This document shows positions 9,301 through 64,000 of a DNA stretch of 64,000 nucleotides, in pieces (within the stretch, counting starts at the first letter, position 1; each line of letters starts with the position of its first letter). The DNA lies in contig OZ025255.1 in the NCBI GenBank assembly GCA_964019135.1, positions 40,392,811 to 40,456,810 on the forward strand. Reading direction: 5' to 3'. Made by a program: the position numbers and the translations under genes. The stretch is from Arenicola marina. Taxonomy: Eukaryota; Annelida; Polychaeta; Arenicolidae. The notes beneath the pieces were generated by a model. It searched no databases and was not told where the DNA came from. It saw nothing but the letters and a program-made list of their open reading frames with translations.

Positions 9301-9329
9301 CTGAAACAAGATAAGGCGAGCAGTGACTA

Positions 9330-9375
9330 ACCAGGAAAGCCCCCACACCCCCGACGATACCAACCACCACATACC
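9330..9375. repeat. 46-bp duplicate of the synaptotagmin exon edge
   Basis: Positions 9330-9375 repeat 9249-9294, the part of the exon encoding the transmembrane segment, with 44 of 46 bases identical. The copy sits in the intron just upstream of the acceptor (minus strand), so a piece of exon edge has been duplicated into the flanking intron. Confidence 0.85.
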
Positions 9376-19681: not shown

Positions 19682-19730
19682 TTAGGGATTGGATTCTCCC
19701 AGGCCAGATACCAATATGGGCAACCAGCCA

Positions 19731-23700: not shown

Positions 23701-23759
23701 AGTTTATATTCCGGACCAGATAGCGCTATGGGTTGCTAGTGGTTACTGTGTTTTTAAAG

Positions 23760-24545: not shown

Positions 24546-24600
24546 ATGACGGAAGGGGAAAGCACTGCCACGGGTGACAGCCCCAAGGCACATTATGGAA
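24546..24600 (+). CDS. IQGAP: IQGAP coding exon 1
   Basis: Start codon in good context (CACCATGA), 18 codons plus one base, donor GTAAGG. It encodes MTEGESTATGDSPKAHYG; the AHYG ending aligns with PHYG of vertebrate IQGAP1. The TAG at 24531-24533 closes the frame upstream. Confidence 0.88.
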
Positions 24601-48600: not shown

Positions 48601-51600
48601 CCCATTGTTGCGCTCTCTAACCAACCTGACCAACCAACCTGTTTATCTCATAATGTCCTGTAACTGACTCCAATGCTCATGTTTATCCCACAGATGCCGG
48701 TGGATGAAGCCGCATGTGAGTTATTATTCATATTGACCTATCTGGCATGTATGTTGTCCCTCAAGGGTGTATGAAGCTTGTAGCAAACCTATCGCAACAT
48801 ACTAGAATAGACCTTCTGCACAATCAGTTGTGCTGCTAATGTTATTTTCTTGTTGAAGTGCACAAAACAGCTATCATTCATCACGTAATAATGTACCGAA
48901 AGCCAGGATGTGCCTTATAACTTTACATTGGTTTTACCGATAACTATTATGACAATCACATAAAATAGGACATGTCGATATGAGTAGCCATTCACTCACC
49001 GTGCGGACAGCAGAGAGCCACCATTTTGACCCGCCCTCCCCCGTCCTCTCTATTCAGTGCACGCCGCCGTGATCGCCATCAACGAGGCCATCGACCATCA
49101 GATTGCCATGGATACCGTCAACGCCCTGCAGCTGCCCGAGGCGCACTTGGTGAACATTTTCCCCCACCACGGCGACCACTACCAGGACGTCCTCTACGAC
49201 GCCAAGCAAACTAAGGCAGAAATAGCCAGAAATAAGGTATGTTGTATTTTATAAAAATCTGCCCCCCACATGTTCAAGATATCGACCCCGACCACCCTGT
49301 CGTACCGTCCGACCAGTTACATTGTCTCAATGAATCTCCTCCGTGTGTTATCAGCTGTAGAGAAAACTCCTCCCCGTGAAACAAACGCAGATGATTTCTG
49401 CATCCATTAAATCAGGAATCCGGTTTAAATTCATTTATATCTCCATTCTCGTACCTGTCCTGTATCTTTACGTAAATGATATCAAAACAACGAGGCAATC
49501 ATCCGATACCTACAACAGTTCAATGTTAACACTCTTTTAACTATCAATTCTAACCATGTTCAGTTATTTACTGAAGTCCATGAGGGTGGCTTTACCGCTT
49601 CCTGTTGCGTTCTGTATGCCAGCATTGTGCTTCCGTTCCGCGTTCACGGACAGAGGGTACGTATTACCTACACCGAGAGGTTAATCTATGTTCAACCACG
49701 CTTCGACCCCTTCCCGATGTACATCCGGACATAGCCATCAGCGCTTTGCGAAACTCATTTTGTTATCCATTTTACTGTTGTTTTCTGTCACCTGTTGGTG
49801 CCCGCCACTCGCTGTGGCAATGCGCCTTGTCCCTGCTCCTCCTACCGTTATCACTGTTATACCTGTGTTGTGTTTTATTTGAGAGGAGTGCACATACACC
49901 TGTGTTTAGCATAGTTAAGGATATATATCTTGCGGTACATTTTCTCACTGAGTATGCAATATATTTGATATATTTGTCCTCGTGTTTATTTTATTTTGCT
50001 GTTCTAATGACATGCACATCTTCTCCTACGCCTGCTCTTGGAATATAGGGTGTCTGGCCTAAGTGTCCTCGAGTATACAAAATCATGATATCATTAAAGC
50101 AATAATACAGGATTTCTTTAAGGAAAAAAATAACGCTTTTTCCTGTAGGTACATCCAATTAGGTAATAACGTCTTGCCTAAGCTAGGGTGCCTGTAGTAT
50201 GCCGCGTCGATGCATCCCTTATCATTACCACATGTCTTCATCATATACGGAACTATGTCGAATTATATCTGGCGTGTATTGTCTGCGTCCTGTTCATGGG
50301 TCCTGACAACAAAAATATATCTGACCCACGTGTTTTGTTTTTGTAGTCCCTTGATCCTGACTATCTATGTTTCTGACCCACCTGTTTTGTTCTTCTAGTC
50401 CCTGGATCCTGACTATCTATGTTTCTGACCCACCTGTTTTGTTCTTCTAGTCCCTGGATCCTGACTATCTATGTTTCTGACCCACGTGTTTTGTGTTCTA
50501 GTCCCTGGATCCTGACTATCTATGTTTCTGACCCACGTGTTTTGTGTTCTAGTCCCTGGATCCTGACTATCTATGTTTCTGACCCACGTGTTCTGTGTTC
50601 TAGTTTCTGGATCCTGACTATCTATGTTTCTGACCCACGTGTTTTGTGTTCTAGTCCCTAGATCCTGACTCTATGTTTCTGACCCACCTGTTTTGTTCTT
50701 CTAGTCCCTGGATCCTGACTATCTATGTTTCTGACCCACGTGTTTTGTGTTCTAGTCCCTGGATCCTGACTATGTTTCTGACCCACCTGTTTTGTTCTTC
50801 TAGTCCCTGGATCCTGACTATCTCTGTTTCTGACCCCCGTGTTTTGTCTTCTAGTCCCTGGATCCTGACAGTAGCTATATCCCTGACGTATACGACGAGT
50901 TGTTGACTCAGGCAGAGATTCAGGGAAACGTCAACAAAGTGAACAGTAAGTGAGCTAGCGTAGCCCTGCAAGCAGATCAGTGTGCTTCACCGTGCTATTA
51001 TAAACACGGGTATGCATGGGACCGCAATGCATTACTTAATCTATTAAAAACATTTGCATTGTACGGATTCTTAACTGGGTTCTCAAGAATGACAAGACAC
51101 ATTTTTTAGTAAAAGAACTGGTATATGCTATATTCCCATTAATCCTTTGCAGCCCAAAGATACAAAATGGATATATTCTCGTGTTACATTTCCCTATTAA
51201 CCCTTTACAGCCCAGGGATAGATATATGCTCGTACTACATATCCTCTTTAACCCTTTGTAGCCCAGGCGGCCCTGCAGCGCGTGTCGGATGCGCTGGAGA
51301 AGAGGGATGCTGGGGCGCTTCTCCCTGCCTTGCGGGCTGCCCAGCTCTCCCTGCGTGAGGTCAAGGACGAATTCGTTGAACTTTACATCGCGCGCCTCAT
51401 GGAAGCACAAGAAAACCGACGTGTATGTCTATTGCACCTTGTTGTGTTAGTTAACAAATATTAAATGCAAATCCGCTGTACATTTGCCTGCGTCCAGATT
51501 TTTTTCTTAGATATTTGTCTCAATATTTTCTGGAGCCTTCGTGTCTGGCAACCAAATTCGGCAACATTCGGTTACACCCGAATTTGTGTAGGATAACGAT

Positions 51601-54600
51601 TATGCCGGATTGACGAATTCAGAAATCCTAGGTGTTGGTGTGACTTGCCTGACCCTTCGGCAATGGCCGATTGTTTGTATCGTCTTTGCGTACATTGGGC
51701 AACGGTAACTTGGAGTGTTGGAACACCGTTAGTAACCCGTCAAGGTCGTCTCCTTGTACTGAAGTAACCTTGGTAATGTCCTTTGCTTATGGTGATCTGA
51801 CCGTTTACAGAACAACAACACGGAGGAGGGCGGCGGGCTGACGAAGGACATTGTGCAGATGGCGATAAACGCCGCCAACCTGGACGGCGACGCTCAGCAC
51901 CAGAGTGAGTCGTCTGTTAACCATGGGAATGGCGTCACCAGTCTGAAGCCTGCCCCTAACCCCACCCCCCTCCCCTCCGCCCCTCCACACACACAGCACC
52001 AGGGTGAGTCTCGTCTGTAAACCTCGGCATGACGTCACCAGTCTGAAGCCTGTCCCCTACCCCCACCCCCCTCCCCTCCGCCCCTCCACACACACAGCAC
52101 CAGAGTGAGTCTCGTCTGTTAACCATGGGAATGGCGTCACCAGTCTGAAGCCTGCCCCTAACCCCACCCCCCTCCCCTCCGCCCCTCCACACACACAGCA
52201 CCAGGGTGAGTCTCGTCTGTAACCCTCGGCATGGCGTCACCAGCCTGAAGCCTAAAACATGGAACCCCCCCCCCCCCCTCCTCTATGTTCATGATCAAGC
52301 TGGAACATATACCCGTATAACACGTAAAGAGTGCATGAACACTCCTCAGGAAAAGTACGCCACTAAAAGACAGCGCCAGAATGAGTCGGCTGAAAACCAT
52401 GGGCATGACGTCACCAGTCTGGAGCCTGCCCCCTATCCCCCCATCCCACCTCTCTTCTATGTTGTCATGAGGATCAAGCTGGAACAGATACCCGTATTAC
52501 ACGTAGAGAGTGCACGAACTCCCCGAAGGAAAAACAACACTAAAAGACAACGTGACAACCTTGCGATATTGGGCAGTAAATGTGGAGCCTATTCTCAACC
52601 GGTGTACCCCATCCACGATCCATGTTACCCCTGTAACCTGATTCACCCATATTACAAGGTGAGCTTCCTATGTTCATCTTTGCAGACGTTGTGGACCGAT
52701 CTCTGCATTCAACAATATTGTTAAGTTGCTTTTTTATAATAAGATGTGTTGCATGTTCTTTTTACGCAGAAATCCTTGCCATCAAGGCCATTAACATCGC
52801 CCTGGACAGTGGGGATAATGCGGAGACGATGCGCGCGCTCCACAACCCCCATGCAGAGCTGCCCCCTGTCGACGACTTCGCAGACATGCTGTACCACTTG
52901 GAACTGAGGAACATGAAGTCCGAGAAGCAGGTCGGTGACGGAGTGCATGTGGCCTGGTTCTGTTGTCATTAGGACGTACATCTCTTCCTTGTACGTTATG
53001 CCGGGGGGGTGGGGGGGTGGGAGGGGGGCAGGCGTGGGACATGGTGGTTAGCGTGATCGGCGTTGTCTAGTGAGCTCTGCCAGGCCAGCCATCGTGCCGG
53101 GGTTCGGGGGTCCTCGACCCACTGGGGACAACCCGAATGGTCTGGTGGTCAGCAGGCTCGGCGTTGTCGAGTAAGCTCTGCCAGGCCAGCCATCGCGCCG
53201 GGGTTCGGGGACCACCCGCATGGTCTGGTGGTCAGCAGGCTCGGCGTTGTCGAGTAAGCTCTGCCAGGCCAGCCATCGTGCCGGGGTTCGGGGGTCCTCG
53301 ACCCACTGGGGACAACCCGAATGGTCTGGTGGTCAGCAGGCTCGGCGTTGTCGAGTAAGCTCTGCCAGGCCAGCCATCGCGCCGGGGTTCGGGGACCACC
53401 CGCATGGTCTGGTGGTCAGCAGGCTCGGCGTTGTCGAGTAAGCTCTGCCAGGCCAGCCATCGCGCCGGAGTTCGGGGACCACCCGAATGGTCTGGTGGTC
53501 AGCAGGCTCGGCGTTGTCGAGTGAGCTCTGCCAGGCCAGCCATCGCGCCGGAGTTCGGGGACCGCCCGAATGGTCTGGTGGTCAGCAGGCTCGGCGTTGT
53601 CGAGTAAGCTCTGCCAGGCCAGCCATCACGCCGGAGTTCGGGGACAACCCGAATGGTCTGGTGGTCAGCAGGCTCGGCGTTATCGAGTGAGCTCTGCCAG
53701 GCCAGCCATCGCGCCGGAGTTCGGGGACAACCTGAATGGTCTGGTGGTCAGCAGGCTCGGCGTTGTCGAGTGAGCTCTGCCAGGCCAGCCATCGCGCCGG
53801 AGTTCGGGGACAACCTGAATGGTCTGGTGGTCAGCAGGCTCGGCGTTGTCGAGTAAGCTCTGCCAGGCCAGCCATCGCGCCGGGGTTCGGGGACCACCCG
53901 CATGGTCTGGTGGTCAGCAGGCTCGGCGTTGTCGAGTAAGCTCTGCCAGGCCAGCCATCGCGCCGGAGTTCGGGGACCACCCGAATGGTCTGGTGGTCAG
54001 CAGGCTCGGCGTTGTCGAGTGAGCTCTGCCAGGCCAGCCATCGCGCCGGAGTTCGGGGACCGCCCGAATGGTCTGGTGGTCAGCAGGCTCGGCGTTGTCG
54101 AGTAAGCTCTGCCAGGCCAGCCATCACGCCGGAGTTCGGGGACAACCCGAATGGTCTGGTGGTCAGCAGGCTCGGCGTTGTCGAGTGAGCTCTGCCAGGC
54201 CAGCCATCGCGCCGGAGTTCGGGGACAACCTGAATGGTCTGGTGGTCAGCAGGCTCGGCGTTGTCGAGTGAGCTCTGCCAGGCCAGCCATCGCGCCGGGG
54301 TTCGGGGGTTTGCGCCTCACTCTGAGAGAATGTCTGTGTCTGCAGATTAAAAACGTTCTTTGCAAAGAGTCGGGGGTTACCCACCGGGAACATGGCTCCG
54401 CTTTACCCTTGATCCTCTCCCATTCATCTATTTACATGTCATCAAACCAACCAGCCAACCAACCAACTACACTGTTTGATATACTGCTTGACTCAATGAA
54501 TATATTTGTATTGTTCCAGTCCAGCTTAGACTACGAGGAATTGGTCGCGGGTGTCCAAGGTGAGTTTCTGTCTTACCCATTAATGGCCTGGTTCGGTTGT

Positions 54601-57600
54601 TAATGCGTTATCCACAATGAGCGGTCCATGCAGGCTCTGCTGCCGTCCTAGATGTATCCTTAGTTGTATGCCGATCATTTGTTGCTAAATAAAAACCTGA
54701 TTGAGTCCAACAATGTTTCGAATTGAAGTAATAGTTACCAGAGAGTTTTGGTGGTTGGGGTGGTGACCACTAGAGACCGTATTGACTGTGACCCCCCTGT
54801 TGGCTGGCTGTTGCTGCAGTGCTCTCGGCCATCGGTAGGCGGGGGGGGGGGGTGACTACGAGAGACCGTATTGACTGTGTGACCCCCCTGTTGGCTGGCT
54901 GTTGCTGCAGTGCTTTCCGCCATCGGTAGGGGGGGGGGGGGTGACTACGAGAGACCGTATTTACTGTGTGACCCCCCTGTTGGCTGGCTGTTGCTGCAGT
55001 GCTTTCCGCCATCGGTAGGGGGGGGGGGGTGACTACGAGAGACCGTATTGACTGTGACCCCCCTGTTGGCTGGCTGTTGCTGCAGTGCTCTCGGCCATCG
55101 GTAGGGGGGTGGGGGGTGACCACGAGAGACCGTATTGACTGTGTGACCCCCCCCCCCCCCCCCCTGTTGGCTGGCTGTTGCTGCAGTGCTCTCTGCCATC
55201 GGTAGGGGGGGGGGGGTGACCACGAGAGACCGTATTGACTGTGTGACCCCCCCCCCCCCCCCCCCCTGTTGGCTGGCTGTTGCTGCAGTGCTCTCGGCCA
55301 TCGGTAGGGGGGGGGTGACCACGAGAGACCGTATTGACTGTGACCCCCCTGTTGGCTGGCTGTTGCTGCAGTGCTCTCGGCCATCGGTAGGGGGGTGGGG
55401 GGTGACCACGAGAGACCGTATTGACTGTGTGACCCCCCCCCCCCTGTTGGCTGGCTGTTGCTGCAGTGCTCTCGGCCATCGGTAGGGGGGGGGGGGGTGA
55501 CCACGAGAGACCGTATTGACTGTGACCCCCCTGTTGGCTGGCTGTTGCTGCAGTGCTCTCTGCCATCGGTAGGGGGGGGGGGGGTGACCACTAGAGACCG
55601 TATTGACTGTGTGACCCCCCCCTGTTGGCTGGCTGTTGCTGCAGTGCTCTCGGTCATCGGTAGTGGGGGGGGGTGACCACGAGAGACCGTATTGACTGTA
55701 TGACCCCCCTGTTAGCTGGTTGTTGCTGCAGTGCTCTCCGCCATCGGTAGGGGGGGGGGGTGGTGACCACGAGAGACCGTATTAACTGTATGTGACCCCC
55801 CCTGTTGGCTGGCTGTTGCTGCAGTGCTCTCCGCCATCGCCCTCATCAACAAGACCATGGACACCGGCAACCCTGAGATGGCCTTCTCAGCACTGCAGAA
55901 CGAGGACGCCCACATCGTGAACGTGGACGAGGGCTGCCGGGAGAAGTACTACCAGACCATGGCCACCATGCGGGCAGCCAAACCCAAGGTCAGCACTCTC
56001 TCCATCCTCTTCCATTCAATAAGTACTACCAGACCATGGCCACCATGCGGGCAGCCAAACCCAAGGTCAGCACTCTCTCTGTCCTCTCCCATTCAATAAG
56101 TACTACCAGACCATGGCCACCATGCGGGCAGCCAAACCCAAGATCAGCACTCTCCTGTCCTCTCCCATTCAATAAGTACTACCAGACCATGGCCACCATG
56201 CGGGCAGCCAAACCCAAGATCAGCACTCTCTCTGTCCTCTCCCATTCAATAAGTACTACCAGACCATGGCCACCATGCGGGCAGCCAAACCCAAGGTCAG
56301 CACTCTCTCTGTGCTCTCCCATTCAATAAGTACTACCAGACCATGGCCACCATGCGGGCAGCCAAACCCAAGATCAGCACTCTCTCTGTCCTCTCCCATT
56401 CAATAAGTACTACCAGACCATGGCCACCATGCGGGCAGCCAAACCCAAGATCAGCACTCTCTCTGTCCTCTCCCATTCAGAAAGTACTACCAGACCATGA
56501 CCACCATGCGGGCAGCCAAACCCAAGGTCAGCACTCTCTCTGTGCTCTCCCATTCAATAAGTACTACCAGACCATGGCCACCATGCGGGCAGCCAAACCC
56601 AAGATCAGCACTCTCTCTGTCCTCTCCCATTCAATAAGTACTACCAGACCATGGCCACCATGCGGGCAGCCAAACCCAAGATCAGCACTCTCTCTGTCCT
56701 CTCCCATTCAATAAGTACTACCAGACCATGGCAACCATGCGGGCAGCCAAACCCAAGGTCAGCACTCTCTCTGTGCTCTCCCATTCAATAAGTACTACCA
56801 GACCATGGCCACCATGCGGGCAGCCAAACCCAAGATCAGCACTCTCTCTGTCCTCTCCCATTCAATAAGTACTACCAGACCATGGCCACCATGCGGGCAG
56901 CCAAACCCAAGATCAGCACTCTCTCTGTCCTCTCCCATTCAATAAGTACTACCAGACCATGGCCACCATGCGGGCAGCCAAACCCAAGGTCAGCACTCTC
57001 TCTGTCCTCTCCCATTCAATAAGTACTACCAGACCATGGCCACCATGCGGGCAGCCAAACCCAAGGTCAGCACTCTCTCTGTGCTCTCCCATTCAATAAG
57101 TACTACCAGACCATGACCACCATGCGGGCAGCCAAACCCAAGGTCAGCACTCTCTCCGTCCTCTCCCATTCAATAAGTACTACCAGACCATGGCCACCAT
57201 GCGGGCAGCCAAACCCAAGGTCAGCACTCTCTCTGTGCTCTCCCATTCAATAAGTACTACCAGACCATGGCCACCATGCGGGCAGCCAAACCCAAGATCA
57301 GCACTCTCTCTGTCCTCTCCCATTCAATAAGTACTACCAGACCATGGCCACCATGCGGGCAGCCAAACCCAAGGTCAGCACTCTTTCCGTCCTCTCCCAT
57401 TCAATAAGTACTACCAGACCATGGCCACCATGCGGGCAGCCAAACCCAAGATCAGCACTCTCTCTGTCCTCTCCCATTCAATAAGTACTACCAGACCATG
57501 GCAACCATGCGGGCAGCCAAACCCAAGGTCAGCACTCTCTCTGTGCTCTCCCATTCAATAAGTACTACCAGACCATGGCCACCATGCGGGCAGCCAAACC

Positions 57601-60600
57601 CAAGATCAGCACTCTCTCTGTCCTCTCCCATTCAATAAGTACTACCAGACCATGGCCACCATGCGGGCAGCCAAACCCAAGATCAGCACTCTCTCTGTCC
57701 TCTCCCATTCAATAAGTACTACCAGACCATGGCCACCATGCGGGCAGCCAAACCCAAGGTCAGCACTCTCTCTGTCCTCTCCCATTCAATAAGTACTACC
57801 AGACCATGGCCACCATGCGGGCAGCCAAACCCAAGGTCAGCACTCTCTCTGTGCTCTCCCATTCAATAAGTACTACCAGACCATGACCACCATGCGGGCA
57901 GCCAAACCCAAGGTCAGCACTCTCTCCGTCCTCTCCCATTCAATAAGTACTACCAGACCATGGCCACCATGCGGGCAGCCAAACCCAAGGTCAGCACTCT
58001 CTCTGTCCTCTCCCATTTCATAGACGCCGGGCTGAGTCAGAAATAGGGCGCTCGATCAAAGGTCATGTTTATTTGGTACCAAAAAGACCCCAGAGAAATA
58101 ATGTTATACATGTACATGTACAATGAAATTTGTAGCTTCCTTCCACTACGTCAGCTTGTTTGTTGACATTATTTGAAGTTCTGAAGAAACCCATCAAAAT
58201 ATGTAATACACGTATATTGAAACGTGTATTTTCCGTCGAATTGAATTGTGAGGTTGAATGGAATATTGAACATAAGTCGGCCATAACATTTTTCTGTGGG
58301 ATTGGACACTAATCACGAATCAACTTTACTTGTAAATATTGACATACCTGCTGACTGGTTTCCCGATCATATAAACTGATTACATCACGTTGCTTGTATG
58401 CAGACCAACGGTTTGTACATCGTTTCTGTTTTGTGTTATTTATGGACTGGCATAGTTTAAAATGAAATACCCGGTATGTAGCAATCAAACCCTCTTCTCA
58501 TTTCTCGCACAGACTACTACCAAGTTGCTGACCCACTTCGAGATCCAACAATGTGTGAACCAAGTCAACCAACAGGTGGTCGGCGAAAACGACAGTGAGT
58601 CAATCCATTTCTTCTTGTGTGTCGATTGCTGATTGTGATCGTTCGCTAACATGGTCATTAATGAGATACAACTCTGTTATATGTCGATATGCTTGATGCT
58701 GAAGGTGTTCACAGTTCAATACCAGAATGCGTATAAAAGGACTTCAGAGACTGTACTTGTTTTCGTACTACATAACCGTCATCTACCCCACCCCGCCCCA
58801 CCCCACCCCCCTGCATCTCACGTCCCATTATTGTCGTCAATGATAATCTCAATGATAATACGTTCGCGAACATGGTCATGAATGAGGTAAAACTCTAATG
58901 TTATATTTCTTCCTCGTTTGACTTGTCAGTAATCATCGAATGCTGACTTGTACTTCAGGAATCCTTGCGATCGGCAGGATCAATGAGGCCATTGACCAGG
59001 ATGTGCCGGCGGAGACTGTGGCCGCGTTAAAGTCCCCCGCTGCTATGATACAGGACATCGACCCGAAGCTTGCCAACTATTACCAACACCTGCTGAAGAA
59101 ACAGAAGCAACTGAGAGCACAAGTATGACCGGTTGAGACATATATTATACAATATTACCGTAGATAGCCCGTGCGATTCAGCCTTAGATTCACATTCATG
59201 CCAGATGTCCTATTGTCAGAATGATACCAACTTGAGTAAAATGTGCCTGTAATTAGCCTGAGACGTGAGGAGTTTGAGGAGAAAGCATAATTTAGCTATG
59301 AGAGAATATCGAGAATCCTCCGCAACCAATGAAGTCTATTTAATGTTCGTCAGAGCACCGATGTCGTTCGTCCAGACTCCCCTATTGCGTCACTATAACG
59401 GAATAATGTTATTCTTCAGGAGATTGACGACCCGACGGCGGCCTTGTGGGTTGAGGACATCCAGGACACCGTGGACCGCGCCAACCAACACGCCCTGGAC
59501 GGCAACAAACGTACGTCAGACCCTGGTGGGGGACCCGCGGGGCACACCTCTGTACGTCAGGTCCTGGTGGGGGACCCGCGGGGCACACCTCTGTACGTCA
59601 GGTCCTGGTGGGGGACCCGCGGGGCACACCTCTGTACGTCAGGTCCTGGTGGGGGACCCGCGGGGCACACCTCTGTACGTCAGGTCCTGGTGGGGGACCC
59701 GCGGGGCACAGCTCTGTACGTCAGGTCCTGGTGGGGGACCCGCGGGGCACACCTCTGTACGTCAGGTCCTGGTGGGGGACCCGCGGGGCACAGCTCTGTA
59801 CGTCAGGCCCTGGTGGGGGACCCGCGGGGCACAGCTCTGTGACACGGGTCCCACAACATCGACAGGACCTACATGCATGTGACACTGCTCCGCCTTATCC
59901 CATGTGCTGTGTGTGGGGAGATTATACCACCATGTACTTATTTAAGTAGAAGATAGGAGGCGACCCTTCCGGACCAGAAACAGTCGTAAATGTAGTTTTT
60001 TTTTCCATATTGTAACATATATTCCTCAACGTGAGAACGATATTAAATGCCATACTAACATTTCCCTTTGATCAGTATGTCCTGAGACCTCTGCGGTGTA
60101 GTGGTTAACGCAATAAATCGCAGACCAGCAGGTCCTGATGCCCTCCCTGGTGTAGTTGTTAACGCGCCAGACCGCAGATCAATAGGTCCTGGTGAATCTG
60201 GGGCGTGTTTATCCATTCATCACTTCATCATCCCGGGAGGTGCCAGGGCTGCCCAGTGTAGACCTTGTGTGTAGACCAGCTGTCTAACACACCACCATGT
60301 ACTTCCTTCCTGTCAGTGTCCATCGCTGTGGCGGCCATTAACATTGGGGTGGACACGGAAGACTCGGCCAACCTCCTCAACTGTCTCCTCAGCGTCGACG
60401 TGGGCCTCAACAGCGTCACGCCGACATGCGCAGACATGTACCTGCGCAGCCTGGCCGACTTCAAGGCAAAGAAAATGGCGTCGGGTACGGCTTCTATCGT
60501 CACGGCCATACGTGTCATCAAATACTGCTAAAGTGTATGTTAAGAGCGGAGGATGATGTGGCTATGATCACAGATTCGTTTAGACCCAAAGTGAAGGTCA

Positions 60601-61713
60601 TAGTGGTTCTGAAAGTCCTATAGTAACCACAGCGTCCTTCCGGGGTCGCGGTAACCTGAACCGAACACCGGTTTTGCGTTACGAGCCATCACTGTAAACA
60701 CAGAAACAACCAAAAAGATAACAGTAATATATATATATATATATATATTTATACTCATACGTTAGGTATTAAAAACAAAGCAAAACACACCTCACATGAA
60801 CAGCTTCTGTATAATATATGCATTACATGGCACTATAACGGTTAGGAGACACAGACTAAGACTTTGAGTTGCCAACGCCTGGCCATCTCAATATATCAGT
60901 ACACTAATGCTTGGCTGGTGGAAAATATTAGTAGAACATAAAATACACAAGACGCGTCCTACACAACGGGTAACATTATGGAGTTTTAATGAAATTGTAC
61001 CCCCTCTTCCCTTATCCTTGACCCCCCTCCCCATATATCAAACCCTTTCCCTTTCCTTCGATGGCAGGCGAGACTGGCGGGGGCTGGATGATGAACAGAC
61101 TGCGGGACGGAGGTCACAAGTTCTTCTTCAACACCCATACCATGGAGTTCGCCTTCGAGCGACCCGACAACGTGAAGAAGGATCACTCCATCCTGACGCG
61201 AGAAGAAATACAGGTACTGTACAGTCAATCTTTAACAAGAGTCATGCCAATAAGAGGCTATGTTAAGTGCCTGAAGAGATGCGTAATGGGTGAGGCCCGC
61301 CCTCGTAAATATTGAATGGTATGCACCCCTCCCCTCTATGATAGTCCAACCATCAGATGTTTAATGAAAATGGACGCCGCCGAAGCCTAAATGATGGATC
61401 CTCACCTACTCTGTGTATGTGTGTCCAGTGGTGGTCTAAGATCCCCTTGATTCACCCAGACAGAGAGCGAGTAACTGTGCCACCCCCTACATAACCCCGC
61501 GCCATGCTATTCACCTGACTGTCATTCTGTTGTTTCTTCCAGAGCTGTGTGACAGAGGTGACGGCCGCCTACGACCGCCGACTGCTGTTCAAGGCCAACG
61601 AACCCTTCTTGGTTCTGGTCCAGGCCAGAATTAGGGGCTTCCTCTCTCGACGCCGCTTCCTCAAGAAGATGGCCTTCATGCACACCCAGCTACCCGCTAT
61701 CCTCAAGATACAG
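24546..61713 (+). CDS. IQGAP: IQGAP scaffold protein, 5' part of gene (21 exons, 786 codons, open at right)
   Basis: IQGAPs are cytoplasmic scaffolds that bind F-actin, Cdc42/Rac, calmodulin and MAP kinases. Coding exons join: 24546-24600, 25307-25403, 25665-25821, 29143-29220, 36852-36928, 47710-47777, 48144-48235, 48694-48715, 49058-49236, 50855-50945, 51262-51422, 51811-51904, 52770-52930, 54520-54559, 55825-55988, 58513-58594, 58959-59122, 59420-59510, 60317-60484, 61068-61213, 61543-61713. They sum to 2358 nt with every phase matching and no stop. The start is fixed by TCACCATGA, an in-frame TAG five codons upstream, and resemblance of AHYGKIQDSRLS to the IQGAP1 N-terminus. Domains by residue: CH about 30-145; six IQGAP repeats about 216-680; WW-like 681-715; first IQ motif about 753-770. 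The remaining IQ motifs, GAP-related domain and C-terminus lie beyond 64000. The paralogue (IQGAP1, 2 or 3) cannot be assigned. Confidence 0.95.
24601..25306 (+). other. IQGAP intron 1
   Basis: It contains an imperfect local duplication: CTTGCCAGGTTCGGCGG with its flank occurs at about 24697 and again at about 24773. An open stretch ending at 24990 with an AATAAA soon after resembles a terminal exon by chance but matches nothing known. No other feature is seen. Confidence 0.6.
25307..25403 (+). CDS. IQGAP: IQGAP coding exon 2
   Basis: Acceptor CTTTTGTAG, donor GTAAGA. It encodes DSRLSADEMDTRRKENIAYE and then YLCHLEEAK, nearly the vertebrate sequence leading into the CH domain. A second AG (ACAG at 25311-25314) would give an out-of-phase start, so 25307 is preferred by phase. 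Confidence 0.93.
25665..25821 (+). CDS. IQGAP: IQGAP coding exon 3 (CH domain)
   Basis: Acceptor TTTCACTGTAG, donor GTAATG. It encodes the first half of the calponin-homology domain, including WIEACIG, LPPTTELEEGLRNGVSL and LKKIYDKDEARYK, closely matching IQGAP1. The CH domain binds F-actin. Confidence 0.95.
25822..26261 (+). other. IQGAP intron 3, unique left part
   Basis: Non-repetitive sequence with nothing recognisable, running into the large intron 3 minisatellite. Confidence 0.6.
26262..29129. repeat. 46-bp minisatellite in IQGAP intron 3, about 62 copies
   Basis: Units contain GTAGTTCAGTAACCGATG then AACTGCCTTG and CCATTCCAATCACCC. Variant types (CCCGAACTCC, CATATAG, TTTATATC) alternate in recurring blocks, so multi-unit segments have been copied. 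The last unit runs directly into the authentic exon 4 acceptor: its CCATTCCAATCACCC supplies the pyrimidine-rich region before GTATGTTACAG. Confidence 0.93.
29143..29220 (+). CDS. IQGAP: IQGAP coding exon 4 (CH domain)
   Basis: Acceptor GTATGTTACAG, donor GTTAGT. Its 26 codons read ARGLHFRHTDNINFWLKSLQ then EVGFPK, matching the CH-domain core of IQGAP1 (GLHFRHTDNVIQWLNAMDEIG). Confidence 0.94.
29221..29580 (+). other. IQGAP intron 4, unique left part
   Basis: No feature seen; leads into the 37-bp array. Confidence 0.5.
29581..31226. repeat. 37-bp minisatellite in IQGAP intron 4, about 45 copies
   Basis: The unit is GATGGAGTGATGTGTTGTGC plus CGGGGTTTGCTTCAATG. A frequent variant has TTTATTAGATGG for TTCAATGGATGG, and groups of units with this variant recur, showing block duplication. 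Confidence 0.93.
31362..31560 (+). mobile_element. tRNA-derived SINE
   Basis: An A-box-like TTTGGTGGTTAGCATAC near 31383 is followed by a perfect B box GGTTCGAATCC near 31423, then a body (AATCTGGGGCATG, CGTCCCGGGAGGTTCC) shared with the element at 60082-60250. The two pol III boxes and the shared body identify a tRNA-headed SINE family. The exact ends are uncertain. Confidence 0.6.
31561..35130 (+). other. IQGAP intron 4, unique middle part
   Basis: Mostly unique sequence. It holds a TA microsatellite at 33354-33374 and, near 32850-32890, a stretch (ACCTCGGCGATATGGCTCCG) related to repeat bodies in introns 7 and 14. A G run lies at about 34706-34715. No exon, RNA gene or transposon end is recognised. 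Confidence 0.5.
35131..36584. repeat. 70-bp minisatellite in IQGAP intron 4, about 20 copies
   Basis: Units of 70 bp contain GAGATCAGAGCGCCATTCCC, ATATCTCACCATCGGGGCGA and CCCTTTGAATGGAGTGAC. Left-hand copies are more variable and right-hand copies nearly identical. The staggered 65-codon frames over it are artefacts. Confidence 0.93.
36585..36851 (+). other. IQGAP intron 4, right end
   Basis: Unique sequence up to the exon 5 acceptor; nothing else recognised. Confidence 0.5.
36852..36928 (+). CDS. IQGAP: IQGAP coding exon 5 (CH domain)
   Basis: Acceptor TTTATTTTCAG, donor GTGAGT. It encodes IFYPETTDIYDRKNMPRVIY then CIHAL, almost identical to IQGAP1 (IFYPETTDIYDRKNMPRCIY). Confidence 0.95.
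36943..37050. repeat. short G-rich tandem repeat just after the exon 5 donor
   Basis: The phrase GGTCGCGGCCTGCCGGG recurs about five times with changes, beginning 14 bp after the exon 5 donor. The donor itself is not part of the repeat. Confidence 0.7.
37051..38374 (+). other. IQGAP intron 5, unique segment with TATG microsatellite
   Basis: A TA/TATG simple repeat lies at about 37217-37257. The open frames at 37754-38146 show no recognisable domain. Nothing else supported. Confidence 0.5.
38375..38585. repeat. about 51-bp tandem repeat in IQGAP intron 5, 4 copies
   Basis: Units share GAAACAGCCGTACTGC, CTTAGCAACGGGGACGCG and TGTGTAATACGCGGC, with several substitutions per copy. Confidence 0.8.
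38586..39439 (+). other. IQGAP intron 5, unique segment
   Basis: Includes a tRNA-like phrase (GTGTCGCGGTTAGATCGCC near 38681) that may be a degraded SINE head. Nothing further. Confidence 0.4.
39440..40775. repeat. higher-order minisatellite in IQGAP intron 5
   Basis: The subunit GCCAGTGGGTCTGTCTGTAG plus ACCAACCTC occurs throughout. In the middle part two subunits plus a spacer with GGATGGGGCACTATGGGGCA and CCCCCATGGGGTGTTG form a block of about 180 bp that recurs about five times. The minus-strand frames across it are artefacts. Confidence 0.9.
40776..41004 (+). other. IQGAP intron 5, short unique segment
   Basis: No feature seen. Confidence 0.4.
41005..41535. repeat. 22-24 bp minisatellite in IQGAP intron 5
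   Basis: The unit CTGATATGGTACCTGATTGG followed by CCTC repeats about 22 times with length changes. Left copies lack the GATTGGCCTC part and read TGATATGGTACCTGGTATAT. Confidence 0.88.
41536..43355 (+). other. IQGAP intron 5, unique segment with simple repeats
   Basis: Contains a possible degraded SINE head (AGTGGCGTAATCGACTGC near 41721), a C run at 42221-42237, a TA microsatellite at 42387-42412, an ACGT repeat at 42639-42660 and a G run at 42784-42796. No exon is recognised. Confidence 0.5.
43356..44985. repeat. 23-24 bp pyrimidine-rich minisatellite in IQGAP intron 5, about 70 copies
   Basis: The unit is CATATCCCTTCACTGCCCCC plus GTC, alternating with CTCCGCCCC types. A block of about 200 bp with TTTCCCTTCACTGCCGACG and TATCTCTCCACTCCGCCCC recurs from about 43645, 44057 and 44332. 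All three plus-strand frames remain open for hundreds of codons because the unit has no stop; no protein is implied. Confidence 0.93.
44986..45346 (+). other. IQGAP intron 5, unique spacer
   Basis: No feature seen. Confidence 0.4.
45347..45600. repeat. 21-bp palindromic minisatellite with E-box in each unit, 12 copies
   Basis: The unit GCACGTGCTAGCATGCATATC contains the palindromes GCACGTGC, GCTAGC and ATGCAT. CACGTG (E-box) is present in eleven successive units at 21-bp spacing, and one more CACGTG follows at about 45606. Two units carry ATGCAAAT (45463-45470 and 45568-45575), 105 bp apart, marking a five-unit higher-order repeat. Confidence 0.95.
45601..47709 (+). other. IQGAP intron 5, unique right part
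   Basis: A G run lies at 46188-46202. Open frames near 46704-46976 and 47020-47256 show no recognisable protein. Nothing else supported. Confidence 0.5.
47710..47777 (+). CDS. IQGAP: IQGAP coding exon 6 (end of CH domain)
   Basis: Acceptor TATTATTTGCAG, donor GTAAAT. It encodes LYLFKLGKAPQIQDLYGKIK then FT, aligned with LYLFKLGLAPQIQDLYGKVD of IQGAP1. Confidence 0.95.
47778..48143 (+). other. IQGAP intron 6
   Basis: A degenerate short repeat (GATAGCAGACTTTATC, TGATATCAGACTTTATC) lies at about 47986-48080. It is otherwise unremarkable. Confidence 0.6.
48144..48235 (+). CDS. IQGAP: IQGAP coding exon 7
   Basis: Acceptor TTCTTGTCGTCAG, donor GTAATT. It encodes DEEINAMRRELEKYGIQMPA then FSKIGGILANE, highly conserved with IQGAP1. 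The phrase TTCAGTAAGATTGG from this exon (48203-48216) is duplicated in the intron at 48241-48254, six bases after the exon end. Confidence 0.95.
48236..48693 (+). other. IQGAP intron 7 with exon-edge duplicate and doubled repeat body
   Basis: Positions 48241-48254 duplicate part of exon 7. From about 48488 to 48595 a repeat body (CTTCGCAAAGAGTAGTATAG, ACGTGGCTCC) occurs twice in tandem. The same body lies in intron 14 near 54358, so it is dispersed. Confidence 0.6.
48694..48715 (+). CDS. IQGAP: IQGAP coding exon 8 (22-nt microexon)
   Basis: Acceptor TTTATCCCACAG, donor GTGAGT. Its 22 nt give MPVDEAA plus the first base of Leu. Together with exon 9 this reads VDEAALHAAV, exactly as in IQGAP1, and the phases match on both sides, so the microexon is required for the frame. 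Confidence 0.9.
48716..49057 (+). other. IQGAP intron 8
   Basis: Unique short intron; nothing recognised. Confidence 0.6.
49058..49236 (+). CDS. IQGAP: IQGAP coding exon 9 (IQGAP repeat 1)
   Basis: Acceptor CCTCTCTATTCAG, donor GTATGT. It encodes HAAVIAINEAIDHQIAMDTV and on to QDVLYDAKQTKAEIARNK, the first of six helical IQGAP repeats. It begins after a phase-1 junction and ends in phase 0, like the other five repeat exons. Confidence 0.95.
49237..50312 (+). other. IQGAP intron 9, unique left part
   Basis: No gene or transposon recognised; the open frame at 49605-50048 has no known similarity. Confidence 0.5.
50313..50854 (+). repeat. minisatellite made of the exon 10 acceptor, 10 decoy copies
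   Basis: A 50-53 bp unit contains a pyrimidine tract, TTCTAG and the first 15 bases of exon 10 (TCCCTGGATCCTGAC), followed by TATCTATGTTTCTGACCCAC. Decoy exon starts lie near 50346, 50398, 50451, 50502, 50553, 50604, 50655, 50705, 50756 and 50804. The eleventh copy at 50855 is the real exon. Some decoys differ slightly (TTTCTGG, TCCCTAG). Confidence 0.93.
50855..50945 (+). CDS. IQGAP: IQGAP coding exon 10 (linker)
   Basis: Acceptor TTGTCTTCTAG, donor GTAAGT. It encodes SLDPDSSYIPDVYDELLTQA then EIQGNVNKVN; VYEELLTQAEIQGNINKVN is the IQGAP1 counterpart. Its first 15 bases are repeated in the array just upstream; only this copy continues into coding sequence. Confidence 0.95.
51139..51268 (+). 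repeat. exon 11 acceptor duplicated, 2 decoys plus real site
   Basis: ATTAACCCTTTGTAGCCCAG at the real acceptor is preceded by TAATCCTTTGCAGCCCA (AG at 51151-51152) and TTAACCCTTTACAGCCCAG (AG at 51209-51210), at 58- and 51-bp spacing. Confidence 0.8.
51262..51422 (+). CDS. IQGAP: IQGAP coding exon 11 (IQGAP repeat 2)
   Basis: Acceptor CCCTTTGTAG and donor GTATGT. It encodes TQAALQRVSDALEKRDAGAL and on to LYIARLMEAQENRR, aligned with the second repeat of IQGAP1. The nearby AG in GTAGCCCAG would shift the frame, so the first AG is used. Confidence 0.93.
51423..51810 (+). other. IQGAP intron 11
   Basis: Unique intron; nothing recognised. Confidence 0.5.
51811..51904 (+). CDS. IQGAP: IQGAP coding exon 12 (linker)
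   Basis: Acceptor GACCGTTTACAG, donor GTGAGT. It encodes NNNTEEGGGLTKDIVQMAIN then AANLDGDAQHQ, the linker before repeat 3. Its last ten bases (CAGCACCAGA) with the donor recur three times downstream. Confidence 0.92.
51893..52211 (+). repeat. minisatellite made of the exon 12 donor, 3 decoys
   Basis: Unit of 99-101 bp. CAGCACCAGA|GTGAGT (real, intron from 51905) recurs as CAGCACCAGG|GTGAGT at 52004, CAGCACCAGA|GTGAGT at 52105 and CAGCACCAGG|GTGAG at 52206. Each decoy is preceded by a strong pyrimidine tract (CCCCTCCGCCCCTCC then ACACACAG), so each also looks like an acceptor a few bases before a donor. Confidence 0.92.
52212..52769 (+). other. IQGAP intron 12, right part with degraded duplication
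   Basis: A segment of about 150 bp (GATCAAGCTGGAACATATAC and flank, from about 52297) recurs in diverged form from about 52472. A faded donor copy (CAGCGCCAGAATGAGTC) lies near 52372. Otherwise unique. Confidence 0.6.
52770..52930 (+). CDS. IQGAP: IQGAP coding exon 13 (IQGAP repeat 3)
   Basis: Acceptor CTTTTTACGCAG, donor GTCGGT. It encodes ILAIKAINIALDSGDNAETM and on to MLYHLELRNMKSEKQ. The pattern hydrophobic-x-AI-x-AIN-x-ALDSGD is the repeat signature. Confidence 0.94.
53041..54310 (+). repeat. 83-bp tandem array of a tRNA-like SINE head in IQGAP intron 13, about 15 copies
   Basis: Each unit has an A-box-like TGGTGGTCAGCAGGCTCGGC and a B-box-like CCGGAGTTCGGGGACC, and 83 bp is close to the length of a long-arm tRNA. 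The first unit reads TGGTGGTTAGCGTGATCGGC. Most units are 83 bp; a few have a longer insert (GGGGTCCTCGACCCACTGGG). After the last unit a SINE-like body follows (near 54330-54430). No unit folds convincingly as a tRNA, so this is read as an amplified SINE head, not a tRNA cluster. Confidence 0.85.
54311..54519 (+). repeat. SINE-like body after the head array
   Basis: GCAAAGAGTCGGGGGTTACC and GGCTCCGCTTTACCC match the body found twice in tandem in intron 7 and a weaker copy near 32850. It directly follows the amplified head, suggesting one SINE whose 5' part was expanded. Confidence 0.5.
54520..54559 (+). CDS. IQGAP: IQGAP coding exon 14 (linker, 40 nt)
   Basis: Acceptor TATTGTTCCAG, donor GTGAGT. 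It encodes SSLDYEELVAGVQ, matching the position of the linker before repeat 4. The phases join exon 13 (phase 0) and exon 15 (phase 1). Confidence 0.9.
54755..55824 (+). repeat. minisatellite made of the exon 15 acceptor, 11 decoy copies
   Basis: The unit is about 82-104 bp, its length varying with G and C runs. It contains GGCTGTTGCTGCAG followed by 15 bases of exon 15 (TGCTCTCGGCCATCG), then GTAGGGGGGG, GAGACCGTATTGACTGTG and a C run. Decoys start near 54810, 54901, 54989, 55077, 55179, 55283, 55365, 55459, 55548, 55637 and 55726, and the real acceptor is at 55824. In decoys GCCATCG is followed by GTAGG where the real exon reads CCCTC. Confidence 0.94.
55825..55988 (+). CDS. IQGAP: IQGAP coding exon 15 (IQGAP repeat 4)
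   Basis: Acceptor GTTGCTGCAG, donor GTCAGC. It encodes LSAIALINKTMDTGNPEMAF and on to EKYYQTMATMRAAKPK. It is the only exon in the window with a splice-site minisatellite on both sides: its first 15 bases are amplified upstream and its last 44 downstream. Confidence 0.94.
55945..58018 (+). repeat. minisatellite made of the exon 15 donor, 26 decoy copies
   Basis: A 77-bp unit consists of the last 44 bases of exon 15 (AGTACTACCAGACCATGGCC ... CCCAAG), the donor GTCAGC and a pyrimidine-rich intron piece (TCTCTCTGTCCTCTCCCATT CAATA). The spacing from 55947 to the last copy at 57948 corresponds to 26 further units. Differences between copies are few (AAG|GTC or AAG|ATC, GACC or GGCC, CAGAAAG for CAATAAG in one unit near 56478). 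In about half of the units the donor GT is replaced by AT. Confidence 0.95.
58019..58512 (+). other. IQGAP intron 15, unique right part
   Basis: No feature recognised. Confidence 0.5.
58513..58594 (+). CDS. IQGAP: IQGAP coding exon 16 (linker)
   Basis: Acceptor CATTTCTCGCACAG, donor GTGAGT. It encodes TTTKLLTHFEIQQCVNQVNQ then QVVGEND, the counterpart of NEFITWNDIQACVDHVNLVV in IQGAP1. Confidence 0.92.
58595..58958 (+). other. IQGAP intron 16 with local duplication
   Basis: A stretch of about 45 bp (GAACATGGTCATGAATGAGG type) occurs at about 58642 and again at about 58861, with several changes. Confidence 0.6.
58959..59122 (+). CDS. IQGAP: IQGAP coding exon 17 (IQGAP repeat 5)
   Basis: Acceptor CTTGTACTTCAG, donor GTATGA. 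It encodes ILAIGRINEAIDQDVPAETV and on to YQHLLKKQKQLRAQ; RILAIGLINEALDEGD is the IQGAP1 counterpart. Confidence 0.95.
59420..59510 (+). CDS. IQGAP: IQGAP coding exon 18 (linker)
   Basis: Acceptor GTTATTCTTCAG, donor GTACGT. It encodes EIDDPTAALWVEDIQDTVDR then ANQHALDGNK, matching EIQDESAVLWLDEIQGGI in IQGAP1. Confidence 0.94.
59508..59838 (+). repeat. 41-bp minisatellite starting at the exon 18 donor, 7 decoy donors
   Basis: Unit GTACGTCAGGTCCTGGTGGG plus GGACCCGCGGGGCACACCTCT. The real donor GTACGT is at 59511; further GTACGTCAG copies lie at about 59552, 59593, 59634, 59675, 59716, 59757 and 59798. The repeat carries the intronic side of the donor but no exon bases. Confidence 0.93.
59839..60081 (+). 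other. IQGAP intron 18, unique part
   Basis: Nothing recognised. Confidence 0.4.
60082..60250 (+). mobile_element. tRNA-derived SINE with duplicated head
   Basis: An A-box-like GTGTAGTGGTTAACGC near 60099 and again GTGTAGTTGTTAACGC near 60151, each followed by CAGACC...GCAGGTCCTG or CAGATCAATAGGTCCTG. The body AATCTGGGGCGTG and CATCCCGGGAGG matches the SINE at 31362-31560. The B box is eroded. Confidence 0.55.
60317..60484 (+). CDS. IQGAP: IQGAP coding exon 19 (IQGAP repeat 6)
   Basis: Acceptor CTTCCTGTCAG, donor GTACGG. It encodes SIAVAAINIGVDTEDSANLL and on to YLRSLADFKAKKMAS, the sixth and last repeat. Unlike the other repeat exons it ends in phase 1, where the WW-like exon follows. Confidence 0.94.
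60485..61067 (+). other. IQGAP intron 19
   Basis: A TA microsatellite lies at 60727-60748; otherwise unique. Confidence 0.5.
61068..61213 (+). CDS. IQGAP: IQGAP coding exon 20 (WW-like segment)
   Basis: Acceptor CCTTCGATGGCAG, donor GTACTG. It encodes the WW region: GGGWMMNRLRDGGHKFFFNT then HTMEFAFERP. The first Trp is present; the second Trp (GWDEPP in IQGAP1) is replaced by Phe in AFERP. SILTREEIQ then matches the end of the IQGAP1 segment (QLSREEIQ). Confidence 0.92.
61214..61542 (+). other. IQGAP intron 20
   Basis: Unique intron; nothing recognised. Confidence 0.5.
61543..61713 (+). CDS. IQGAP: IQGAP coding exon 21 (first IQ motif)
   Basis: Acceptor GTTTCTTCCAG, donor GTCAGT. It encodes SCVTEVTAAYDRRLLF, then the IQ motif VQARIRGFLSRRRF (residues about 755-768; calmodulin or myosin light-chain binding) and the start of the next motif, QLPAILKIQ. 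The last 42 bases are amplified downstream. The next exon lies beyond the window. Confidence 0.94.
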
Positions 61714-64000
61714 GTCAGTTAAGGGCCTTCATGCACACCCAGCTACCCGCCATCCTCCAGATACAGGTCAGTTAAGGGCCTTCATGTACACCCAGCTGCC
61801 CGCCATCCTCAAGATACAGGTCAGTTAAGGGCATTCATGTACACCCAGCTGCCCGCCATCCTCAAGATACAGGTCAGTTAAGGGCATTCATGTACACCCA
61901 GCTACCCGCCATCCTCAAGATACAGGTCAGTTAAGGGCATTCATGTACACCCAGCTACCCACCCTCAAGATACAGGTCAGTTAAGGGCATTCATGTACAC
62001 CCAGCTGCCCGCCATCCTCAAGATACAGGTCAGTTAAGGGCATTCATGTACACCCAGCTGCCCGCCATCCTCAAGATACAGGTCAGTTAAGGGCATTCAT
62101 GTACACCCAGCTGCCCGCCCTCAAGATACAGGTCAGTTAAGAGCATTCATGTACACCCAGCTGCCCGCCATCCTCAAGATACAGGTCAGTTAAGGGCCTT
62201 CATGTACACCCAGCTGCCCGCCATCCTCAAGATACAGGTCAGTTAAGGGCATTCATGTACACCCAGCTGCCCGCCATCCTCAAGATACAGGTCAGTTAAG
62301 GGCATTCATGTACACCCAGCTACCCGCCATCCTCAAGATACAGGTCAGTTAAGGGCCTTCATGTACACCCAGCTACCCGCCATCCTCAAGATACAGGTCA
62401 GTTAAGGGCCTTCATGTACACCCAGCTACCCGCCATCCTCAAGATACAGGTCAGTTAAGGGCATTCATGTACACCCAGCTGCCCGCCATCCTCAAGATAC
62501 AGGTCAGTTAAGGGCCTTCATGTACACCCAGCTGCCCGCCATCCTCAAGATACAGGTCAGTTAAGGGCATTCATGTACACCCAGCTGCCCGCCATCCTCA
62601 AGATACAGGTCAGTTAAGGGCCTTCATGTACACCCAGCTGCCCGCCATCCTCAAGATACAGGTCAGTTAAGGGCATTCATGTACACCCAGCTACCCGCCA
62701 TCCTCAAGATACAGGTCAGTTAAGGGCATTCATGTACACCCAGCTGCCCGCCATCCTCAAGATACAGGTCAGTTAAGGGCCTTCATGTACACCAGCTGCC
62801 CGCCATCCTCAAGATACAGGTCAGTTAAGGGCATTCATGTACACCCAGCTACCCGCCATCCTCAAGATACAGGTCAGTTAAGGGCATTCATGTACACCCA
62901 GCTACCCGCCATCCTCAAGATACAGGTCAGTTAAGGGCATTCATGTACACCCAGCTACCCGCCATCCTCAAGATACAGGTCAGTTAAGGGCATTCATGTA
63001 CACCCAGCTACCCGCCATCCTCAAGATACAGGTCAGTTAAGGGCCTTCATGTACACCAGCTGCCCGCCATCCTCAAGATACAGGTCAGTTAAGGGCATTC
63101 ATGTACACCCAGCTACCCGCCATCCTCAAGATACAGGTCAGTTAAGGGCATTCATGTACACCCAGCTGCCCGCCATCCTCAAGATACAGGTCAGTTAAGG
63201 GCATTCATATACACCCAGCTACCCGCCATCCTCAAGATACAGGTCAGTTAAGGGCATTCATGTACACCCAGCTGCCCGCCATCCTCAAGATACAGGTCAG
63301 TTAAGGGCATTCATGTACACCAGCTGCCCGCCATCCTCAAGATACAGGTCAGTTAAGGGCATTCATGTACACCCAGCTACCCGCCATCCTCAAGATACAG
63401 GTCAGTTAAGGGCATTCATGTACACCCAGCTACCCGCCATCCTCAAGATACAGGTCAGTTAAGGGCATTCATGTACACCCAGCTGCCCGCCATCCTCAAG
63501 ATACAGGTCAGTTAAGGGCCTTCATGTACACCCAGCTACCCGCCATCCTCAAGATACAGGTCAGTTAAGGGCATTCATGTACACCCAGCTGCCCGCCATC
63601 CTCAAGATACAGGTCAGTTAAGGGCATTCATGTACACCCAGCTACCCGCCATCCTCAAGATACAGGTCAGTTAAGGGCATTCATGTACACCCAGCTGCCC
63701 GCCATCCTCAAGATACAGGTCAGTTAAGGGCATTCATATACACCCAGCTACCCGCCATCCTCAAGATACAGGTCAGTTAAGGGCATTCATGTACACCCAG
63801 CTGCCCGCCATCCTCAAGATACAGGTCAGTTAAGGGCATTCATGTACACCCAGCTACCCGCCATCCTCAAGATACAGGTCAGTTAAGGGCATTCATGTAC
63901 ACCCAGCTGCCCGCCATCCTCAAGATACAGGTCAGTTAAGGGCATTCATGTACACCCAGCTGCCCGCCATCCTCAAGATACAGGTCAGTTAAGGGCATTC
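61672..64000 (+). repeat. minisatellite made of the exon 21 donor, about 43 decoys, open at right edge
   Basis: A 53-bp unit: last 42 bases of exon 21 (GCCTTCATGCACACCCAGCT ... AAGATACAG), donor GTCAGT, then TAAGG. From the third copy on, units read TTCATGTACACCCAG, while the copy next to the exon still has the exon's own CACACC. A few units are shortened (CCCGCCCTCAAG, ACACCAGCTG). The array runs off the window. Confidence 0.95.

What the first reader, a model, noticed from the sequence alone, without database searches (positions are those of the whole stretch)
50313..64000. Repeated conversion of IQGAP splice junctions into minisatellites
At least six junctions (exon 10 acceptor, exon 11 acceptor, exon 12 donor, exon 15 acceptor and donor, exon 21 donor) are the seed of a tandem array whose unit contains the splice site plus 6-44 exon bases; exon 18 adds an array of donor intron bases only. 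The arrays carry roughly 100 decoy sites, yet all 21 exons join in frame with no lesion. I recall that minisatellites across exon-intron borders were reported in amphioxus and called mirages, so the class may be known. The density here, on both acceptors and donors of one gene, looks exceptional. Inference: a replication or repair process starts at or is tolerated at splice junctions, and the spliceosome must choose the correct copy every time.
Basis: partly seen in the sequence, partly recalled or inferred. Interest (0 to 1): 0.88.

Follow-up and report, generated by a model that had tools for sequence, protein, structure and literature searches.

The report
Tandem repeats straddling IQGAP exon borders
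In one animal gene (IQGAP), seven exon edges carry tandem repeats that copy the splice site up to 44 or more times, an extreme-looking example of the "mirage" minisatellites already described in amphioxus genes.

Summary
The window holds the 5' part of an IQGAP gene: 21 GT-AG exons, 786 codons, no stop. Six exon borders lie inside tandem arrays whose unit holds the splice site plus 4 to about 47 exon bases; a seventh array starts exactly at the exon 18 GT. They hold 90 intact decoy sites and 13 broken ones, all on the intron side. In 4 of 7 arrays every intact decoy scores as well as the real site. A single decoy used would put a stop into the mRNA in 87 of 90 cases.

The class is known: amphioxus "mirages". 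New is the number in one gene and an exon bracketed on both sides.

A junction-seeking process is not shown. Arrays fill 47% of the window, and 13 of the gene's 20 touch no border. Enrichment is about 4-fold (P about 0.002) under random placement, but 5 against 2.0 (P 0.03) when each array stays in its own intron. I favour random minisatellite birth in a repeat-rich locus, tolerated because exon definition picks the exon-side pair. Species, reads, RNA and genome were unavailable.

The parts
24546..49236 (+). IQGAP exons 1-9 (24546-24600, 25307-25403, 25665-25821, 29143-29220, 36852-36928, 47710-47777, 48144-48235, 48694-48715, 49058-49236)
   Evidence: gene model; homology of the N-terminal part
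50320..50869 (+). Array at exon 10 acceptor, 11 copies of about 51 bp; real acceptor is the last copy (exon 10 = 50855-50945); 10 intact decoy acceptors upstream
51113..51267 (+). Three-copy duplication at exon 11 acceptor (exon 11 = 51262-51422); decoy acceptors at 51153 and 51211, 4 and 6 exon bases shared (TRF reports 51170-51267; the first copy came from the site search)
51895..52253 (+). Array at exon 12 donor (exon 12 = 51811-51904), about 100-bp unit; 3 intact decoys downstream, plus one broken (AT) at 52381 outside the TRF array
54757..55839 (+). Array at exon 15 acceptor (exon 15 = 55825-55988); 11 intact decoy acceptors upstream; all 11 decoy units read CAG|15 nt|GT, a possible symmetric microexon
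55944..58017 (+). Array at exon 15 donor, 27 copies of 77 bp (about 45 exon + 32 intron bases); 14 intact decoys, 12 with GT>AT
59511..59840 (+). Array starting exactly at exon 18 donor GT (exon 18 = 59420-59510), 8 copies of 41 bp, no exon bases; 7 weak decoys
61671..64000 (+). Array at exon 21 donor (exon 21 = 61543-61713), at least 44 copies of 53 bp, runs off the window; 43 decoys identical at the 9-base donor
53124..54307 (+). Array inside intron 13, 193 bp from the nearest border: a comparison case showing that donor-like sites (28) also occur in a non-junction array
26262..29125 (+). Intron 3 array ending 17 bp before the exon 4 acceptor; it does not cross the border
36940..37040 (+). 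Short array starting 11 bp after the exon 5 donor; it does not cross the border

Best explanation
These are mirage-type minisatellites. Short tandem duplications arise throughout this repeat-rich locus. Some happen to straddle an exon border and later expand by unequal exchange or slippage. They persist because the extra copies fall on the intron side. The spliceosome is proposed to use the copy next to the exon body because sites are paired across the exon (exon definition): the innermost acceptor-donor pair gives the shortest exon, and the unique exon body with its enhancers is attached only to the real site. Residual use of decoys would nearly always create a stop codon and be removed by nonsense-mediated decay. 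Shown: the gene model, the arrays, decoy counts, their intron-side position and the stop-codon consequence. Inferred: random origin, exon-definition choice, decay of errors.
For: Decoys lie on the intron side at all 7 arrays. Local sequence cannot explain the choice in most arrays: intact decoys scoring at least as high as the real site are 3/3 at e12, 11/11 at e15 acceptor, 14/14 at e15 donor, 43/43 at e21, 4/10 at e10, 0/2 at e11 and 0/7 at e18. 87 of 90 single-decoy mRNAs gain a stop. Only 10 of 90 decoys would leave an exon of 250 nt or less, roughly the usual range for exon definition (recalled). Array density is high everywhere: 33 hand-merged arrays, 30267 of 64000 bases, with 13 of the gene's 20 arrays touching no border. 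Regular splicing despite mirages is reported for Adh3 and globin genes (PMC3087553 passages) and for Adh and TnC (PMC3902484 passages). U1 at a downstream donor recruits SRSF1 and raises recruitment of factors to the upstream acceptor, a proposed basis for exon definition (PMC8724738 passages).
Against: No RNA was available, so the copy used is deduced from frame alone, and not at all for exon 21. At e11 and e18 the real site does score best, so strength could suffice there. Ten decoys would still give exons of ordinary length, so exon size alone cannot settle every choice. SRSF1 binding can favour the intron-proximal donor of a competing pair (PMC5585400 passages); that would favour decoys. 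Border enrichment has P 0.0015-0.0037 under random placement and 0.03 in the strictest null, so some junction preference is not excluded. The species is not identified.
Confidence: 0.72

Rival explanations
1. A DNA process targets exon borders: tandem duplication is initiated preferentially at splice junctions, for example at co-transcriptional R-loops or base-composition steps, so mirages are a mutational signature of splicing or transcription.
For: 6 of 20 arrays span a border against about 1.5 expected, P about 0.002; 6 of 8 in the flagged region against 1.7-2.0, P 0.0015-0.0037. 7 of 20 touch a border, P 0.001; 9 of 20 lie within 20 bp, P 0.0005. Published mirages hit several unrelated amphioxus genes.
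Against: Falls to P 0.03 when arrays are kept within their own introns. One gene chosen because it looked extreme. 13 of 20 arrays in the same gene touch no border.
Confidence: 0.15
2. The arrays act as copy-number rheostats: decoys are used at a rate that rises with copy number, the products decay, and array length tunes IQGAP output, perhaps varying between cells because mirages are somatically unstable.
For: 87 of 90 decoys lead to a stop; many decoys are as strong as the real sites; length instability, and somatic instability at Adh3, are reported (PMC3087553 passage).
Against: Published RT-PCR suggested regular splicing with mirages. No consistent conservation of decoy sequence: variable columns in the exon-derived against the intron-derived part are 2/45 v 8/32 at e15 donor but 6/43 v 0/10 at e21.
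Confidence: 0.06
3. Some arrays erase themselves by recursive splicing. In the exon 21 array each unit's AG|GT also reads as an acceptor, so joining exon 21 to any later unit rebuilds the identical donor and no error is visible.
For: All 44 AG|GT sites score 4.4-6.2 as acceptors, above the weakest real acceptor (3.8); exon 21 is the only one of 11 AG|GT donors in the gene to pass. Every unit examined rebuilds the same donor sequence.
Against: Works for one of 7 arrays only (the exon 15 donor scores -4.0 as acceptor). Adjacent units would be 53-nt introns. The score is a simple matrix typed from recall. About 1 acceptor-like site per 164 nt passes in non-array introns too (39 in 6394 nt).
Confidence: 0.04
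4. Assembly artefact: repeat copies were multiplied or mis-joined by the assembler.
For: No reads were available. A published B. floridae mirage was rebuilt from traces because the draft looked misassembled (PMC3087553 supplement legend), and PGBD5 repeat numbers differed between two versions of the genome.
Against: Units are not identical and carry ordered variants, such as the G/A pattern at the exon 15 donor. Re-examined Sanger and new Illumina data are said to confirm the PGBD5 repeats.
Confidence: 0.05

Closest known systems
Amphioxus 'mirage' minisatellites (Adh3; globin BflGb6 and BflGb9; TnC; PGBD5)
   Same: Tandem repeats spanning exon-intron borders, at acceptors or donors, copying splice signals; normal mRNA reported for Adh3, globin and TnC (passages read; Adh3 and TnC papers not read).
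   Different: In the passages I saw, one border (BflGb6, BflGb9) or two (PGBD5) per gene and up to 7 copies; here 6 borders plus one abutting array in one gene, up to 44 or more copies, and one exon flanked on both sides. Adh3 and TnC copy numbers were not seen. Species of the window unproved.
Ordinary intronic minisatellites
   Same: Same window, unit sizes 14-83 bp against 41-101 bp; 13 of the gene's 20 arrays are of this kind.
   Different: Their units do not include a real splice site.
Intron gain by tandem duplication of AG/GT sites (model cited in PMC3087553)
   Same: Units can hold an acceptor and a donor; all 11 decoy units of the exon 15 acceptor array read as 15-nt in-frame microexons.
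   Different: No evidence that any new exon or intron is used here.

Membership tests
Mirage minisatellite | Tandem repeat unit spans an exon-intron border | tested here: met
   6 arrays, with exon-side similarity of 4 to about 50 bases; the exon 18 array has none and does not meet it strictly
Mirage minisatellite | Many copies keep AG or GT signals | tested here: met
   90 intact of 103 decoys over 7 arrays
Mirage minisatellite | mRNA is spliced normally | not testable with these tools
   Only an open 21-exon frame is shown
Mirage minisatellite | Length polymorphism, somatic instability | not testable with these tools
   One sequence only; reported in PMC3087553 passage
Mirage minisatellite | Reported host is amphioxus | not testable with these tools
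   No eukaryote collection; no genome held for the window
IQGAP gene | Calponin homology domain of IQGAP type at the N-terminus | tested here: met
   2rr8 E 5e-98, 3i6x 2e-88
IQGAP gene | IQ motifs, RasGAP-related and RasGAP C-terminal domains | not testable with these tools
   Expected beyond the window end; Pfam found only CH in the 786 aa; exon 21 looks like the start of an IQ stretch by eye only
Recursive splice sites | AG|GT with usable acceptor context that rebuilds the donor | tested here: inconclusive
   Met by score in the exon 21 array only; no RNA

The most novel reading that the evidence does not exclude
Splice junctions are preferred birth places of tandem duplications in this genome, so exon borders are repeatedly turned into expanding arrays by a process linked to transcription or splicing, and the splicing machinery routinely ignores dozens of equal sites per junction.
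Probability: 0.14. Interest if true: 0.82.

Novelty: new member of a known kind. Interest (0 to 1): 0.48.

Why it matters
How the spliceosome finds one right site among many equal ones is an old question. This gene offers a natural test: seven arrays, 90 decoys, in several arrays as strong as the real site, both acceptors and donors, and a clear prediction (the exon-side copy) that one long-read RNA experiment could settle. If borders proved to be hotspots genome-wide, it would link splicing or transcription to minisatellite birth and to intron gain.

Tried and rejected
RNA accessibility as the selector: the real site was less open than most decoys at 4 of 7 arrays (e10, e11, e15 acceptor, e21) and more open than most at 3 (e12, e15 donor, e18), so it does not explain the choice.

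Conservation of decoys: no consistent pattern. Variable columns were 2/45 exon-derived v 8/32 intron-derived at e15 donor; 6/43 v 0/10 at e21; at e10 3/26 on the intron side and 8/25 on the exon side; 2/41 at e18 (intron only). Units used were 26 of 27, 39 of 44, 6 of 11 and 8 of 8. At e12, 0 of 5 units passed because of gaps. e11 and the e15 acceptor were not tried.

Decoy strength as the selector: rejected for the 4 arrays where every intact decoy equals or beats the real site; not rejected for e11 and e18. The first fuzzy search for copies missed most copies and was replaced. The micro-exon pattern returned nothing because its length bound was wrong; it was repeated correctly (11 of 11 decoy units).

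Rfam and tRNA scans of the window: 0 hits each. Pfam scan of 20 stop-to-stop frames that I picked from the lists (the output was cut): one clear hit, a C2 domain, and one match far below its cut-off.

One search named IQGAP: 46 papers held 3 of its 5 terms, and none of the 15 listed held the word IQGAP. No listing showed a genome-wide scan of tandem repeats at amphioxus exon borders, but lists were capped and most subscription papers are not held. Passages only were read of PMC3087553, PMC3902484, PMC2206037 (amphioxus huntingtin, mentions tandem repeats and assembly errors), PMC5585400 and PMC8724738. Splice-site matrices and the 250-nt exon limit come from recall. That exons 10-21 resemble the human IQGAP1 middle region is also recall, not a search result.

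Full report
What is there. The + strand of the window carries the 5' part of an IQGAP gene. I rebuilt 21 exons with GT-AG ends from 24546 to 61713; they join into 2358 nt and 786 codons with no stop. The N-terminal part matches solved IQGAP1 structures (2rr8, E 5e-98; 3i6x, 2e-88) and the Pfam CH domain. The rest of the gene, by analogy with IQGAP proteins, should lie beyond the window.

The arrays. Tandem Repeats Finder gave 56 rows, which I merged by hand into 33 arrays covering 30267 of 64000 bases, small gaps inside merged arrays included. Twenty lie in the gene. Six cross an exon border: exon 10 acceptor, exon 11 acceptor, exon 12 donor, exon 15 acceptor, exon 15 donor, exon 21 donor. A seventh starts exactly at the GT of exon 18. 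Thirteen touch no border; two of these come within 17 and 11 bp of one.

Decoys. Site by site, the seven arrays hold 103 extra copies: 90 intact decoys (10, 2, 3, 11, 14, 7, 43) and 13 broken ones, 12 of them GT>AT in the exon 15 donor array. The exon 21 array runs off the window, so its 44 copies are a minimum. All decoys lie on the intron side. With a simple matrix (recalled values), every intact decoy scored at least as well as the real site at e12, e15 acceptor, e15 donor and e21, 4 of 10 did at e10, and none at e11 (0 of 2) or e18 (0 of 7).

Consequence. I swapped each intact decoy in turn for the real site and translated the joined 21 exons: 87 of 90 gained a stop; 1 at exon 12 and 2 at exon 18 stayed open. 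For exon 21 the downstream exon is unknown, but reading into the first intron unit meets a stop at once. So, if the gene is functional, the copy next to the exon body should be the one normally used at the six borders that frame can test; for exon 21 this is the likeliest choice.

Is it more than chance? Each array was collapsed to one unit and placed at random 200,000 times; the observed counts were entered by hand. Over the whole gene span, 6 of 20 spanned a border against 1.4-1.6 expected, P 0.0017-0.0025 (for 5, without the weak exon 11 case, P 0.010-0.015); in the flagged region, 6 of 8 against 1.7-2.0, P 0.0015-0.0037; with five weak or short arrays dropped, 5 of 15 against 1.3, P 0.005. 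Counting arrays that touch a border, 7 of 20 against 1.8, P 0.001. The strictest null keeps each array in its own collapsed intron; the exon 21 array was left out because its intron end is unknown. Then 5 of 19 against 2.0-2.1, P 0.032-0.038. Short introns in the 3' part explain much of the excess. The gene was also chosen for looking striking, so these P values are flattering.

How the right copy could be chosen. RNA accessibility does not do it: the real site was less open than most decoys in 4 of 7 arrays. Site strength cannot do it in the four arrays where every intact decoy is as good. Exon length helps: only 10 of 90 decoys leave an exon of 250 nt or less. I therefore favour pairing across the exon, with the unique exon body attached only to the real sites, plus removal of errors by nonsense-mediated decay. 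This is inference. Passages of PMC8724738 support the idea that U1 at a downstream donor helps recruit factors to the upstream acceptor; passages of PMC5585400 show that SRSF1 can favour the intron-proximal of two donors, which speaks against a simple rule.

Two curiosities. In the exon 15 acceptor array all 11 decoy units read CAG, 15 nt, GT; one such unit as an exon would insert five residues in frame with no stop (two variants tried). In the exon 21 array each of 44 AG|GT sites also scores as an acceptor (4.4-6.2, against 3.8 for the weakest real acceptor; the only one of 11 AG|GT donors to do so), so recursive splicing would rebuild the same donor.

What is known. Passages of PMC3087553 describe tandem duplications of exon borders in amphioxus globin genes, name them mirages after the Adh3 case, report acceptor and donor cases, RT-PCR suggesting regular splicing, length instability and somatic instability at Adh3. 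Passages of PMC3902484 add PGBD5 (2 or 7 copies of 60 bp, 3 or 6 of 108 bp, in two versions of the genome) and TnC. The Adh3 paper itself is not held. The phenomenon is therefore known; this gene is a denser example than those I saw described. The species of the window was not established; amphioxus is plausible from the literature only.

Second gene. A minus-strand synaptotagmin exon ends at about 8432 (by eye) and starts near 9300 (Pfam C2 4e-25; Syt-7 7e-46). A 46-bp piece of its start is repeated 81 bp upstream (44 of 46 identical), with an acceptor-like stretch between, so border duplication may not be confined to IQGAP here.

Noticed in passing
window 8432-9400, - strand: Synaptotagmin exon (membrane segment, linker, C2A) on the minus strand; a 46-bp piece of its 5' part occurs twice, 81 bp apart, with an acceptor-like stretch between the copies (by eye) and an open frame through both.
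   Followed up: partly
window 19723-23703: About 132 copies of a 30-bp unit; the donor-like word CAAGTGAGT occurs 120 times with no recognised exon. A 1068-codon open frame arises because the period is a multiple of 3.
   Followed up: partly
window 1154-5944: 4.8-kb purine-rich array (unit GAAAGGGAGAGGGAGGCAGAGAGA) with AT skew 0.95-0.97 and GC skew 0.83-0.86 over 2001-6000, a possible triplex or replication-stalling tract.
   Followed up: no
window 55989-58017: Exon 15 donor array shows an ordered G/A pattern at the donor +1 base (GGAAGAAGAAGAAGGGGAGAGAAGGGG, real copy first), suggesting one GT>AT change spread by expansion of multi-unit blocks.
   Followed up: partly
window 50855-50910: The exon 10 array unit may extend further into the exon in degenerate form; CCTGAC in the exon and TCTGAC at the unit start could be the microhomology at the founding duplication (by eye).
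   Followed up: no
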